Shown: in pieces, positions 1,363 through 6,069 of the stretch | Layout: each line of letters opens with the position of its first letter | Numbering within the stretch: position 1 is the stretch's first letter | Source: Myxococcus landrumus | GTDB taxonomy: Bacteria; Myxococcota; Myxococcia; Myxococcales; Myxococcaceae | Length of the DNA stretch: 64,000 nt | Direction of reading: 5' to 3' | Assembly (NCBI RefSeq): GCF_017301635.1 | Contig: NZ_CP071091.1 | Location: 8,734,501-8,798,500 of the forward strand | Made by a program: the position numbers and the translations under genes | The notes under the pieces: generated by a model | Seen by the model: only the letters and a program-made list of their open reading frames with translations | The model's database searches: none | What the model was told of the DNA's origin: nothing

Positions 1363-3678
1363 CTACTTGCGGAGGACGCCGCCGCTCACGACCAGGCCGT
1401 ACTTCGCGTCGATGACGCGGGTGCTCAGGTCGGCGTCCTGGACGATTTCGTCGCCGAGCACCGTCACGGTCCACGCGCCGGCCTCGGGGTTGGCCAGGAA
1501 GACGTTCTCGACGGTGTCCACCTTGTTGGAGACGCCGCCGGACGTGGAGACGTTGCTCGCCGTCAGGCCGTTGTTGCCCCAGTACACGACGCCGGAGGGC
1601 GAGGTGACGCGCAGCGAGATGTCATTGATGCGCGCCTGGGCGGCGCCCACCGTGCCCGCGGGGTCCGTGTAGACGAGCGTGACGTTGAGCTCCTTCTCCC
1701 CCGCGGCGACAGTGACGCCGTAGGTGTTGCTGCCCAGGGGCAGGAGGGTGTCCGTCTCGTCGATGATGCCCGTCACCGGGGCGCGGTCATGCAGCCGCTT
1801 GATGTCCGCGGTTCCCCAGCCCTGGCGCGCGCGCGTCAGGTCGCCGTTGGTGCCGCCCGCCGGCCAGTTGTAGCGGTAGGCCATGTTGATCATCAGCGCC
1901 TTGGCGGTGGCCATCTGCGGGCGGCTGGCGAAGACATCCGCGCCGCCGCCGTGGCCGGCCCACACGCCCTTGTGCCACATCTCGAAGAGGAGCCCGAAGT
2001 GGCCCGCCGTCTCCGGGGTGGCGGCGCTGGTTCCGCCGAACTCCGTGTACGACGTGTTGCTCGCGTTGCTGGCCGCGCGAATCTGGTCGTAGAAGTAGGA
2101 CAGGTCCGGCTTGAGGCGTCCGTCGGCCGCGGGGCCGATGCTCGCGCTGTTGCTCCAGGCGTCGTCGGTGCGGCTGGCGGTGTTGCGGTGGTAGAAGCCG
2201 CCGACGGAGACGATGTTCTTGGCCCACGCCTGCGGCCGCGAGTTGCGCGTGCCGGAGTTGCTCTGGGACTGGGTGCTGAGGATGGGGGCCTTGTGGAGGT
2301 AGTCATCCACCTCGGCGGAGATGGTGGTGTACGTCGTGCCCAGGGTGCTTCCCACGCTGGAGGTCTGGAACACGGCGCGGTAGGGGCCCGCCGGGTCCGT
2401 CAGCTCGCGGTTGATGTCGTAGCGGGACTTGCTCCCGCCGAACTGGGTGGACTCGCTGTAGAGGAAGAAGATGCCCTGGCCCTTGGGGAGCATGCCTCGC
2501 GCCTCGGGGACGACGCCCTTGGCGAAGTTGATGCTGTAGCAGCTCGTCCCGTGCGCGCTGCCGGCGGTGGACGTGCTGTGGATGATGGGCGCCACGGCCC
2601 ACTCCTGATGCGTGGTGCGCAGCTCGGTGTCGAAGATTTCGCCGCGCACGCCCTCGCCCGTCCAGCCGCGCGTCGTCTCGAGGAAGTTGGCGCCGCCCAC
2701 CTCGCGCACGATGTTCATGTCCACTTCACCCGGGCCACCCCAGCGGTCGATGAACTGCACCGCGTTGGAGCGCACCAGTCGCTCGAGCTGAGGCTGGGTG
2801 AGCGTGGCCTCCACGCGCAACCCACCCGGCTCGATGAGGTCCACGGTGCCGCCCAGCTTGCGCACCAGCTCGGCGACCTCGCCCTGGCGCGCCGCGCCGC
2901 GCTCACCCACCATGATGGAGTAGCGCTGCGCCTCCAGCCGGGCGGAGCGTCCCGTGAGGGCGTCACGCAGGAAGCCCTCCACGCGATACTCCGGATGGTA
3001 CGGGCCCACCCAGCGCACGAAGGGCAGCTCCGCGACGCGCTTCTTCGTGTCCGCGTTCATCTCCACCAGGAACGTGTGGTCCGTGAGGAAGCGCAGCACC
3101 TTGCCTCCCTCGCGCTCCAGGGACTCCCGCAGCTCCGGCAGCGGCGTCGCCTGGAGCTGCACGAGCGACAGCGTGTTGCCCGGGTCCGCCGTCAACAGGC
3201 CCGCGACGAGCGGCGCCGTGTCACGCAGCGGGTCGAACTGAACGTGTCCCAGGCGCACCTGATACGTCGTGGCCTGGGCCCGGCCGACGAGCTCCGTGCC
3301 ACCGCGGCTGTACGCGAAGAAGTCCTGACGCTGTCCGGCCGCGTCCTCCTCTTCCCAGACATGCAACTGGAGCGAGGTGCTGGGGACCGACAGGGTCTTC
3401 AGCGAATGCACCAGGTTGTCCGTCCGGTGGAACACCCGGCCGGCACCCGTGACGAGCGAACTGCGCCCCTTCACCGAGTCCGCCAGCCCCGTGACAGGAC
3501 GCGCCGTGGTGGCCTTGTCGCTGTCGATGACACGCGCCGCGGGGGTCGCGGCGCGCTCGACTCCTGACGGCGCCTTGGTCGCCGCGAACGCCGGAATCGG
3601 CGCGAGAAGGCCACAGCCCAGGGTCATGACAGTGAGGCGACGCCAGCTTCCCGCATACGACGAGAATGCAGTCTTCAT
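1363..3678 (-). CDS. Secreted S8 (subtilisin-like) serine protease with C-terminal beta domain
   Basis: A 771-residue precursor. Residues 1-32 form a signal peptide (arginine-rich start, hydrophobic core, cleavage likely after AFA). A long propeptide-like region follows to about 320. The peptidase domain carries Asp350 (in EIFDTEL), His376 (in AHGTSC), the oxyanion-hole Asn474 (in QSNSG) and the nucleophile Ser551 (in GGTSAATP), so the triad is intact; the usual DTG is DTE here. Residues about 640-745 look like a P-domain or pre-peptidase beta sandwich as seen after many secreted subtilases (VTLVYTDP, ISLRVTSPSG). The role is probably extracellular protein breakdown, as expected in a predatory or scavenging bacterium. 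It is divergent from the kinase gene across an AT-rich region. Family is certain; the substrate is unknown. Confidence 0.92.
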   Translation of the reverse strand: MKTAFSSYAGSWRRLTVMTLGCGLLAPIPAFAATKAPSGVERAATPAARVIDSDKATTARPVTGLADSVKGRSSLVTGAGRVFHRTDNLVHSLKTLSVPSTSLQLHVWEEEDAAGQRQDFFAYSRGGTELVGRAQATTYQVRLGHVQFDPLRDTAPLVAGLLTADPGNTLSLVQLQATPLPELRESLEREGGKVLRFLTDHTFLVEMNADTKKRVAELPFVRWVGPYHPEYRVEGFLRDALTGRSARLEAQRYSIMVGERGAARQGEVAELVRKLGGTVDLIEPGGLRVEATLTQPQLERLVRSNAVQFIDRWGGPGEVDMNIVREVGGANFLETTRGWTGEGVRGEIFDTELRTTHQEWAVAPIIHSTSTAGSAHGTSCYSINFAKGVVPEARGMLPKGQGIFFLYSESTQFGGSKSRYDINRELTDPAGPYRAVFQTSSVGSTLGTTYTTISAEVDDYLHKAPILSTQSQSNSGTRNSRPQAWAKNIVSVGGFYHRNTASRTDDAWSNSASIGPAADGRLKPDLSYFYDQIRAASNASNTSYTEFGGTSAATPETAGHFGLLFEMWHKGVWAGHGGGADVFASRPQMATAKALMINMAYRYNWPAGGTNGDLTRARQGWGTADIKRLHDRAPVTGIIDETDTLLPLGSNTYGVTVAAGEKELNVTLVYTDPAGTVGAAQARINDISLRVTSPSGVVYWGNNGLTASNVSTSGGVSNKVDTVENVFLANPEAGAWTVTVLGDEIVQDADLSTRVIDAKYGLVVSGGVLRK

Positions 3679-3969: not shown

Positions 3970-4437
3970 ATGGAACTCATCCTCTTCATCGGGTTGCAGG
4001 CCTCGGGCAAGAGCCGCTTCTTCCAGCGTCGCTTCGCCTCGACGCACGTCCTGGTGAGCAAGGACCTGTGGCCCAACGCGCGGCGCAAGGAGGCACGCCA
4101 GCAGCGGTGGGTGGCCGAGGCGCTGGGCGAAGGGAAGTCGGTGGTGGTGGACAACACCCACCCGACGCTGGAGCAGCGCGCGCCGCTCATCGCGCTGGGC
4201 CATGCGCAGGGCGCGTCTGTCATTGGCTATTACTTCTCCTCGAAGCTGGCGGACTGCCTGGCGCGGAACGCGGAGCGGCAGGGTCGCGCGCGAGTGCCGG
4301 AGGTGGCGCTGTTCGCGACGGCGAAGCTGTTGCGGCGGCCGAGCCGTGAGGAGGGATTTGATTCGTTGTACCGCGTCACCCTGGACGGCGACGGGGACTT
4401 CGTCGTCGAGGACTGGAAGGAGCCGCGAGATGATTGA
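3970..4437 (+). CDS. P-loop kinase of the AAA_33 / polynucleotide kinase-like family
   Basis: 155 residues. The start at 3970 gives MELILFIGLQ, placing the Walker A loop GLQASGKS at residues 8-15 as usual for this family; a longer frame begins at 3847 but its first 41 residues look non-coding. The motif VVDNTHPT (59-66) matches the VDNTNPT segment of bacterial and phage polynucleotide 5'-kinases, and an arginine-rich lid follows (about 99-108). It likely transfers phosphate from ATP to a nucleic-acid or nucleotide hydroxyl, though small-molecule kinases share the fold. Its 3' end overlaps the Thg1-like gene by 8 bases (4430-4437), implying translational coupling and a shared role, perhaps preparing RNA ends. 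Confidence 0.8.
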   Translation: MELILFIGLQASGKSRFFQRRFASTHVLVSKDLWPNARRKEARQQRWVAEALGEGKSVVVDNTHPTLEQRAPLIALGHAQGASVIGYYFSSKLADCLARNAERQGRARVPEVALFATAKLLRRPSREEGFDSLYRVTLDGDGDFVVEDWKEPRDD

Positions 4438-5200
4438 CGCCGATGAGATGGCCCGGAGGATGCGGCAGGGGGAGCTGTTCCACGGCCTGCGCCTGTTGCC
4501 GGGGGCGTGGGCGGTGTTGCGCGTGGATGGACGCGGCTTCTCCCGCTTCACCCAGGAGCGCTTCGAGAAGCCGTTCGACCCGCTCTTCCACAGGTTGATG
4601 GTCCGCACCGCGAGCACGCTGCTGGAGGAGTTCCAGGGCATCTACGCGTATACGCAGAGCGACGAAATCTCCGTGCTCTTCCGTCCCGACTGGTCGCTGT
4701 TCGACCGCGAGGTGGAGAAGCTGGTGTCGCTGTCCGCCAGCGTGGCGACCGCGACCTTCACGCATGCGTTGGGCGTGCCCGCGGTGTTCGACGGGCGCGT
4801 GTGGATGGGCGTGGATGAGCGCTCGGTGCTCGACTACTTCGCGTGGCGTCAGGCGGACGGCACCCGGTGTTCGCTTCAGGGGTGGTGCTACTGGACGCTG
4901 CGCAAGGAGGGGCTGAGCGCGGCGCAGGCCACGCGCGAGCTGGATGGGCGGTCCGCGTCCTTCAAGAACGAGCTGCTCTTCCAGCGAGGCATCAACTTCA
5001 ACGAGGTGCCGCTCTGGCAGCGCCGGGGCTCCGCCATCCGTTGGGAGCGCTACGTGAAGGAGGGCGTGGACCCTCGCGACGGCTCCCGTCATCAGACGAC
5101 GCGGCGCCGGCTCGGGGTGGACTCGGAGCTGCCCATGAAGGAGGCCTACGAGCGCTATCTGCGCGACGTGCTCGCCGCTTCCCCGCCGGAGCCTCGCTAG
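4430..5200 (+). CDS. Thg1-like protein (tRNAHis guanylyltransferase family, 3'-5' polymerase)
   Basis: 256 residues, the size of Thg1 proteins. The catalytic metal-binding residues are visible: Asp33 and Gly34 in LRVDGRGFSRF and Asp78-Glu79 in YTQSDEIS, matching the two-metal palm of Thg1. Downstream motifs typical of the family include a conserved HALG (about residues 103-106) and the SFKNELLF segment. Thg1 adds G-1 to tRNAHis in eukaryotes. In most bacteria G-1 is encoded in the gene, and bacterial Thg1-like proteins instead repair truncated 5' ends of RNA by templated 3'-5' addition. The gene overlaps a polynucleotide-kinase-like gene, which supports an RNA-repair role (inference). Its stop shares a CTAG with the convergent gene. 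Confidence 0.93.
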   Translation: MIDADEMARRMRQGELFHGLRLLPGAWAVLRVDGRGFSRFTQERFEKPFDPLFHRLMVRTASTLLEEFQGIYAYTQSDEISVLFRPDWSLFDREVEKLVSLSASVATATFTHALGVPAVFDGRVWMGVDERSVLDYFAWRQADGTRCSLQGWCYWTLRKEGLSAAQATRELDGRSASFKNELLFQRGINFNEVPLWQRRGSAIRWERYVKEGVDPRDGSRHQTTRRRLGVDSELPMKEAYERYLRDVLAASPPEPR

Positions 5201-6069
5201 CCGGTGGGGGCGTCCAGCAACATCACCCGCCACAGCCGGGGCTTGTCGTACTTGGGAGGAATCATTCCCATCGGCCAGCCCTCGGCGGTGACTTCCGCGT
5301 ACTGATAGCTGCGCCCGCCGTGGCGCAGCCGGGTGCCCGTGCCCGGAAGGCCCACGCCCACCGCCGCGTGGGCCAGCGGGTCCGAATAGAGCATCACCGC
5401 GTCGATGCCCACCTGACGCAGCAACATCACCGCGAGCAGCGCCTTGGAGTCGCAGTCGCCTCGATTGCGTGCGGGCACCAGCGCGGGAGGGACGATGCCG
5501 AAGGGCTCGTCATGCGGCAGCTCGTACTGGATGCGCTGCACGAAGCCGAGGATGAGCTGCGCGGCCTGCGCGGAGTCCAGGTTGCGCTCGCGGACGGACG
5601 TGACGAAGCGCTCGCCCAGCGCCTTCACGGGCCCCTCGTTGCTGCGCATCAGCTCCTCGTAGATGCAGCGCATGTCCGCGGAGCAGCCGCGAGGTGGCTG
5701 ATAGGTGAAGCGCTCGCCGCCCAGGGAGCGGTAGCGCAACCTCCGCCCGAGCGCCTTGAGCTGGTCCTCCATCCAGGCATCCAACGTGTCGCCCAGCCCG
5801 TACGTCAGCCGATGGTCGGGCGGCGTGAGGCCCGCCGTGCTCCAGGCATACGTCCGTGCACGGGAGCGCGGCGTGTCCGACGGAATGAGCACCGTGCCCA
5901 GCTCCATCGCATCCGAGCCCCCGGGGACCTCATGGGCCGCGGCGCCCGCGTCCGTGTCCGCGAGCCGGCCCACCATCCCCAGACGCACGGCCCCCCCGAG
6001 CGCGCCCGCCATCACCAGCAGCGCGACGAGGAGCTTGAGGGCCGTCTTCATGCGCGAATCAGAGGACAT
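5197..6069 (-). CDS. Transglutaminase-like protein, membrane-anchored or secreted
   Basis: 290 residues. A hydrophobic segment at about 9-30 acts as a signal anchor; a second ATG (residue 7, position 6051) is also a possible start and no ribosome site decides between them. The C-terminal half has a transglutaminase/papain-like core: Cys206 in RNRGDCDSKALL, His234 in DPLAHAAVGV and an acidic Glu259 in YAEVTAEGW in place of the usual Asp. Such domains act as peptidases or amide-forming enzymes outside the cytoplasm. The gene lies 21 bases downstream of a DUF350 membrane protein gene and is likely cotranscribed with it. It is convergent with the Thg1-like gene and shares its stop. Substrate unknown. 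Confidence 0.8.
   Translation of the reverse strand: MSSDSRMKTALKLLVALLVMAGALGGAVRLGMVGRLADTDAGAAAHEVPGGSDAMELGTVLIPSDTPRSRARTYAWSTAGLTPPDHRLTYGLGDTLDAWMEDQLKALGRRLRYRSLGGERFTYQPPRGCSADMRCIYEELMRSNEGPVKALGERFVTSVRERNLDSAQAAQLILGFVQRIQYELPHDEPFGIVPPALVPARNRGDCDSKALLAVMLLRQVGIDAVMLYSDPLAHAAVGVGLPGTGTRLRHGGRSYQYAEVTAEGWPMGMIPPKYDKPRLWRVMLLDAPTG

What the first reader, a model, noticed from the sequence alone, without database searches (positions are those of the whole stretch)
3970..5200. Two-gene RNA-end repair candidate: polynucleotide-kinase-like protein plus Thg1-like polymerase
The kinase has GLQASGKS and VVDNTHPT like nucleic-acid 5'-kinases, and the partner has the full Thg1 catalytic acids; the genes overlap by 8 bases. 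In the known bacterial Thg1-like proteins the enzyme extends RNA 5' ends by 3'-5' addition and needs an activated or phosphorylated 5' end. A kinase supplying the 5'-phosphate in the same transcript would be a simple self-contained repair unit. That link is inference; I do not know whether the pairing has been described for myxobacteria.
Basis: partly seen in the sequence, partly recalled or inferred. Interest (0 to 1): 0.7.

Follow-up and report, generated by a model that had tools for sequence, protein, structure and literature searches.

The report
RNA 5'-end kinase paired with Thg1
Two overlapping genes in a Myxococcus encode a kinase that probably puts a phosphate on broken RNA 5' ends and a Thg1-type enzyme that rebuilds RNA 5' ends backwards; the pairing was already proposed in 2010, but relatives in which it sits inside a Hen1-Pnkp RNA-repair operon make its role easier to test.

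Summary
A 155-aa P-loop kinase (3970-4437) and a 256-aa Thg1 (4430-5200) overlap by 8 bp and form a two-gene unit. The predicted kinase model matches 5'-OH polynucleotide kinases best (mammalian PNKP Z 19.1, bacterial Pnkp Z 18.9), and Thg1 keeps its catalytic acids. The pairing and its explanation are not new: Anantharaman, Iyer and Aravind (2010) reported polynucleotide kinase as the most persistent bacterial neighbour of Thg1 and proposed that it makes the 5'-phosphate.

My survey of 129 Thg1 loci adds four points. (1) Pairing marks one Thg1 clade (82 of 103) and is nearly absent from the other (1 of 26). (2) Kinase and Thg1 trees agree (r 0.88), so the pair is inherited and transferred as a unit. 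(3) In three cyanobacteria the pair lies between Hen1 and full-length Pnkp, and a Deinococcus plasmid carries it near Hen1 and RlaP: strong pointers to RNA repair. (4) Several Myxococcus genomes keep the kinase although Thg1 is lost or a stub, so the kinase is not only Thg1's servant.

The genome's tRNA-His encodes G-1 opposite C73, so histidine-tRNA maturation is not needed. No activity has been shown here.

The parts
3970..4437 (+). stand-alone PNKP/Pnkp-type P-loop kinase, 155 aa
   Evidence: AAA_33 52 bits; family profile hits mammalian PNKP at 1.7e-22; AlphaFold model pLDDT 93.8, PNKP Z 19.1 at rmsd 1.5 A over 138 residues
3991..4014 (+). P-loop GLQASGKS (residues 8-15)
   Evidence: G8, G13, K14 at least 90% conserved in 35 homologues
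4063..4065 (+). invariant D32, aligned to the Asp of the NRD motif of mammalian PNKP
4150..4158 (+). invariant D61-N62-T63
4264..4278 (+). lid motif R99-N100-x-x-R103, invariant
4430..5200 (+). Thg1-like 3'-5' polymerase, 256 aa (Thg1 + Thg1C domains)
   Evidence: best solved relative is the Thg1-like protein 5axk, E 4.5e-33
4430..4437 (+). 8-bp overlap of kinase stop and Thg1 start (ATGATTGA)
   Evidence: an overlap is found in 67 of 82 paired loci
4526..4528 (+). metal-binding D33
4661..4666 (+). metal-binding D78-E79

Best explanation
The two genes make a small RNA 5'-end repair module. The kinase phosphorylates 5'-OH ends left by ribonuclease cleavage. Thg1 then activates the 5'-phosphate with a nucleotide and adds missing nucleotides 3'-to-5', templated by the opposite strand (most likely on tRNAs with damaged or truncated 5' sides). 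Translational coupling keeps the two products in step. Shown here: gene structure, predicted fold and active-site residues, conserved gene overlap, congruent trees, RNA-repair neighbours in relatives, and no need for G-1 addition or 5' editing on the genome's own tRNAs. Inferred: that the kinase acts on RNA, that it hands its product to Thg1, and that damaged tRNA is the substrate.
For: Kinase fold and profile: PNKP/Pnkp kinases rank first (Z 18-19) above tRNA-Sec kinase (15.8), PFKFB and T4 Pnk (about 14.5) and gluconate kinase (13.8); the profile search gives PNK and tRNA kinases, with the first metabolic kinase only at E 0.014. Thg1 catalytic residues intact. In Thg1 clade A, 82 of 103 have the kinase directly upstream; in clade B, 1 of 26. 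Tree-distance correlation 0.883 against a permutation maximum of 0.154, or 0.409 within phyla. Stop/start overlap in 67 of 82. Three Myxococcaceae with Thg1 but no adjacent kinase, and G157, carry a close kinase elsewhere in the genome. Myxococcota co-occurrence 53 both, 5 Thg1 only, 20 kinase only, 117 neither. Hen1-kinase-Thg1-Pnkp order in L283, L284, L285, with Hen1 and Pnkp remnants in L282; Hen1 and two RlaP genes near the pair on a Deinococcus plasmid, RlaP next to Thg1 in Thiodictyon; PtuA-PtuB-kinase-Thg1 in L280. tRNA-His has encoded G-1 and C73, and no other tRNA needs repair at positions 1-3 apart from the usual initiator C1:A72. All tested bacterial and archaeal Thg1-like proteins prefer 5'-truncated tRNAs (PMC6471195), and a 5'-phosphate is the known substrate.
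Against: Thg1 is lost or reduced to a C-terminal stub in G115, G121, G125 (Myxococcus) and G102 while the kinase stays intact, with dN/dS about 0.14-0.42 against relatives, and stand-alone kinases occur in two other families. In the actinobacterial order searched, Pnkp is nearly universal, so it cannot be shown to replace the missing kinase. The window pair itself has no Hen1, Pnkp, RlaP or Septu gene in the 64 kb. AAA_33-like kinases also phosphorylate small molecules. No expression or activity data.
Confidence: 0.68

Rival explanations
1. The kinase is a general RNA (or DNA) 5'-end healing enzyme with its own pathway; Thg1 is a frequent but optional passenger, and the operon reflects shared regulation rather than substrate hand-off.
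For: Intact kinase kept without Thg1 in G115, G121, G125, G102 and in families f2 and f3; the first four remain under purifying selection. In the Hen1-kinase-Thg1-Pnkp operons Pnkp already brings its own kinase domain.
Against: Strong clade-specific linkage, tree congruence and stop/start overlap with Thg1. A second, dedicated kinase beside Pnkp is easier to understand if it serves Thg1.
Confidence: 0.2
2. Small-molecule kinase plus Thg1 in an unrelated or signalling role.
For: The P-loop kinase superfamily is broad; PFKFB, zeta and gluconate kinase share the fold.
Against: PNKP-type matches rank clearly first in sequence profile and structure; RNA-repair neighbours in relatives.
Confidence: 0.06
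3. Thg1 here serves tRNA-His G-1 addition or obligatory tRNA 5' editing.
For: The M. xanthus homologue adds a single G to tRNA-His in vitro (PMC6471195).
Against: The genome encodes G-1 opposite C73, and acceptor stems of its tRNAs are paired at positions 1-3 except the usual initiator C1:A72. Thg1 is lost in close relatives.
Confidence: 0.04

Closest known systems
Bacterial Thg1-polynucleotide kinase gene pair (Anantharaman, Iyer and Aravind 2010, PMC2904730)
   Same: Same two families as neighbours and the same proposed function
   Different: Nothing essential for the window pair; the present survey adds clade specificity, co-inheritance, kinase retention without Thg1, and links to Hen1, RlaP and Septu
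Pnkp-Hen1 and Pnkp1-Rnl-Hen1 RNA repair (PMC4411300)
   Same: PNKP-type 5'-kinase used on cleaved RNA; in three cyanobacteria the pair lies inside a Hen1-Pnkp operon
   Different: The window has no Hen1, phosphatase or ligase; the kinase is a single domain
Thg1-like proteins (Bacillus thuringiensis, Methanosarcina acetivorans, Myxococcus xanthus)
   Same: Catalytic domain, C-terminal domain, metal acids
   Different: In the papers read here (PMC3701042, PMC6471195) they were studied without a partner kinase

Membership tests
Thg1/TLP 3'-5' polymerase | Thg1 and Thg1C domains above Pfam cut-off | tested here: met
   108.6 and 59.5 bits
Thg1/TLP 3'-5' polymerase | Three metal-binding carboxylates | tested here: met
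   D33, D78, E79; at least 99% conserved
Thg1/TLP 3'-5' polymerase | Templated 3'-5' nucleotide addition to 5'-phosphorylated RNA | not testable with these tools
   needs enzyme assay
5'-OH polynucleotide kinase (PNKP/Pnkp-type kinase domain) | P-loop, catalytic Asp and Arg/Asn lid motif | tested here: met
   G8, G13, K14, D32, D61-N62-T63, R99-N100-R103 conserved
5'-OH polynucleotide kinase (PNKP/Pnkp-type kinase domain) | PNK fold closest among solved structures | tested here: met
   mammalian PNKP Z 19.1, C. thermocellum Pnkp Z 18.9; predicted model pLDDT 93.8
5'-OH polynucleotide kinase (PNKP/Pnkp-type kinase domain) | ATP-dependent 5'-phosphorylation of RNA | not testable with these tools
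   needs enzyme assay
Bifunctional PNKP or full Pnkp (TIGR01663, TIGR04075) | Phosphatase and, for Pnkp, ligase domains; score over cut-off | tested here: not met
   kinase domain only; 31.5 and 32.4 bits against cut-offs 502.8 and 750
Thg1-PNK pair of Anantharaman et al. 2010 | PNK-family gene adjacent to Thg1, conserved across lineages | tested here: met
Hen1-Pnkp RNA repair system | Hen1 and Pnkp in the locus | tested here: not met
   no Hen1 or Pnkp match in the 64-kb window; met in relatives L283-L285

The most novel reading that the evidence does not exclude
The kinase-Thg1 pair is a gap-filling module of bacterial anti-ribotoxin RNA repair. It restores nucleotides lost from the 5' side of a break before, or instead of, sealing by Hen1-Pnkp, and is recruited to defence loci whose nucleases cut tRNA (the PtuAB-kinase-Thg1 locus). 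The Hen1-kinase-Thg1-Pnkp and Septu-kinase-Thg1 operons would be new arrangements; I found neither in the papers held, but the 2010 supplement and Burroughs and Aravind 2016 could not be read.
Probability: 0.3. Interest if true: 0.68.

Novelty: new member of a known kind. Interest (0 to 1): 0.4.

Why it matters
Reverse (3'-5') RNA polymerases exist in many bacteria without a known job in the cell. A Thg1 clade tied genetically to a 5'-kinase, and in some relatives to Hen1-Pnkp repair or to a Septu-type nuclease of a family known to cleave tRNA, turns the open question of what bacterial Thg1 is for into a concrete test: does it rebuild nuclease-damaged tRNA 5' ends?

Tried and rejected
tRNA-His maturation or obligatory tRNA 5' editing: rejected on the tRNA set. 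Pnkp as a replacement for the missing kinase in unpaired actinobacteria: not testable, since Pnkp is nearly universal in that order (295 of 347 over cut-off). A close phage source of the pair: no kinase relative in phages, and no close Thg1 in viral contigs; the phage Thg1s examined fall in clade B without the kinase. An alternative partner for stand-alone kinases in families f2 and f3: no obvious recurrent neighbour seen by eye from ORF calls, no domain search done. Sigma-70 promoter and intrinsic terminator scans: nothing found, uninformative at this G+C content. Rfam: no RNA element in the window. The own-genome AAA_33 search showed no Pnkp-length frame that could be Pnkp.

Full report
Observation. 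The kinase runs from 3970 to 4437 (155 aa) and Thg1 from 4430 to 5200 (256 aa), with an 8-bp overlap. They form a two-gene unit on the plus strand: the upstream S8 protease (1363-3678) is divergent and the downstream transglutaminase-like gene (5197-6069) is convergent. Both genes are single copy in the genome, which is a 10.37-Mb single contig. The genus is Myxococcus: the same-genus genome G123 has a Thg1 contig of the same length (480,368 bases) as the M. qinghaiensis contig behind L031.

What the proteins are. Thg1 has both Pfam domains and the metal acids D33, D78 and E79; its best solved relative is a Thg1-like protein, 5axk. The kinase is a single PNKP/Pnkp-type domain. An alignment of 35 homologues leaves D32, R43, D61-N62-T63, F89, R99-N100, R103, P124 and F130 invariant and the P-loop nearly so. 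A profile of the family finds mammalian PNKP at 1.7e-22, C. thermocellum Pnkp at about 1e-14, tRNA-Sec kinase at 3e-10 and T4 Pnk at 5e-7 to 2e-6; the first metabolic kinase appears only at 0.014. The AlphaFold model (pLDDT 93.8) matches PNKP at Z 19.1 (rmsd 1.5 A, 138 residues) and Pnkp at Z 18.9, above tRNA-Sec kinase (15.8), PFKFB and T4 Pnk (about 14.5) and gluconate kinase (13.8). It is not a full PNKP or Pnkp: the phosphatase and ligase domains are absent.

Conservation of the pairing. I collected Thg1 loci from Myxococcota (58 of 195 genomes), one actinobacterial order (46 of 347 over cut-off), the phylum of a Sericytochromatia genome (13 of 386), plasmids, phages and contigs. In a tree of 129 non-redundant Thg1s two groups separate. 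Clade A, which holds the window protein, has the kinase directly upstream in 82 of 103 (Myxococcota 45 of 51, Actinomycetota 25 of 37, Cyanobacteriota 11 of 12, Deinococcus plasmid 1 of 1). Clade B, with the sampled phage and Bacillota proteins and others, has it in 1 of 26. That one case (L024) pairs a clade-B Thg1 with a kinase of the other group, which suggests an independent pairing. The kinase and Thg1 trees agree: distance correlation 0.883, against a maximum of 0.154 over 500 permutations and 0.409 when permuted within phyla. In 67 of 82 paired loci the kinase stop overlaps a Thg1 start; this uses the candidate start nearest the stop, so it is an upper estimate. These numbers come from related genomes and are not independent events; the tree needs 13 changes of state.

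Linkage is not obligatory. Of 18 genomes with an unlinked clade-A Thg1, four (G091, G092, G093, G157) have a close kinase elsewhere (E 1e-56 to 1e-64), and the actinobacterial ones show only weaker matches, the best of them in Pnkp-like frames. Pnkp is nearly universal in that order (295 of 347), so substitution cannot be inferred. In Myxococcota, kinase and Thg1 co-occur (53 both, 5 Thg1 only, 20 kinase only, 117 neither), but the kinase is the more persistent partner. In G114, G115 and G121 Thg1 is reduced to its C-terminal part, and in G125 and G102 it is gone. The kinase is intact in G115, G121, G125 and G102, but truncated in G114. Pairwise dN/dS of these intact kinases against relatives is 0.14-0.42, similar to paired ones. 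This is the main evidence that the kinase also does something without Thg1, although recent loss of Thg1 cannot be excluded.

Context in relatives. In L283, L284 and L285 (cyanobacterial phylum) the order is Hen1 (TIGR04074; 742, 713 and, for a shortened frame, 573 bits), kinase, Thg1, full-length Pnkp (TIGR04075, 1439-1456 bits, cut-off 750). L282 keeps a short remnant of Hen1 and the last 104 residues of Pnkp on either side of the pair. On Deinococcus taeanensis plasmid p_TS293_5 the pair is followed within 5 kb by Hen1 and two RlaP genes (RNA repair pathway polymerase-beta family), and in Thiodictyon a solo clade-A Thg1 overlaps RlaP. In L280 the pair directly follows PtuA and PtuB (PADLOC E 4e-92 and 7e-39); Septu and retron PtuAB are reported to cleave tRNA-Tyr (PMC13096335, which also reports the earlier retron work). 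A clade-B Thg1 on a Paenibacillus plasmid lies two genes downstream of a protein with a PNKP ligase domain. The Septu link is a single case. The window pair has none of these neighbours within 64 kb.

Why repair rather than maturation. The genome's tRNA-His has a G encoded at -1 and C73, and no tRNA needs repair at positions 1-3 apart from the usual initiator C1:A72. Published work states that all bacterial and archaeal Thg1-like proteins tested prefer 5'-truncated tRNAs, and that the M. xanthus enzyme adds one G to tRNA-His in vitro (PMC6471195). The 5'-OH ends left by many ribonucleases need a kinase before Thg1 or a ligase can act (PMC2904730, PMC4411300).

Prior knowledge. PMC2904730 (2010) reports that in bacteria the most persistent Thg1 neighbour is a polynucleotide-kinase-family P-loop kinase, proposes that it makes Thg1's 5'-phosphate substrate, notes MACRO and RNA ligase neighbours, and lists M. 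xanthus among its organisms. Among the papers listed for Hen1, Pnkp and Thg1, none held both Hen1 and Thg1, but that is not proof of novelty, because the 2010 supplement and Burroughs and Aravind 2016 were not available.

Verdict. A real, conserved RNA 5'-end repair pair of a known kind. Its new value lies in the extended context and in the finding that the kinase outlives Thg1.

Noticed in passing
L280:2968-6261 (cyanobacterial phylum, G958): PtuA-PtuB (Septu-type) genes run directly into the kinase and Thg1 genes with overlapping or nearly overlapping ends, followed by a FliG-like gene.
   Followed up: partly
L284:2176-7461, L285, L283: Hen1 - stand-alone kinase - Thg1 - Pnkp operons, i.e. 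two different 5'-kinases in one operon.
   Followed up: partly
L275, L276, L278: Thg1 reduced to C-terminal stubs beside an intact kinase (truncated in L275) in three Myxococcus genomes, apparently by separate deletions.
   Followed up: partly
L024 (G182): Only clade-B Thg1 in the sample with a kinase upstream; its kinase groups with the clade-A cyanobacterial and Myxococcota kinases.
   Followed up: no
own genome G000:C1:4991782-4992593 and 4913976-4914485 (L140, L141): Two clusters of low-scoring tRNA genes, many repeating anticodons present elsewhere in the genome, possibly mobile-element tRNA arrays.
   Followed up: no
L084 (Paenibacillus thiaminolyticus plasmid): Clade-B Thg1 two genes downstream of a protein with a PNKP ligase domain, a possible second route to linking Thg1 with RNA ligation.
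   Followed up: no
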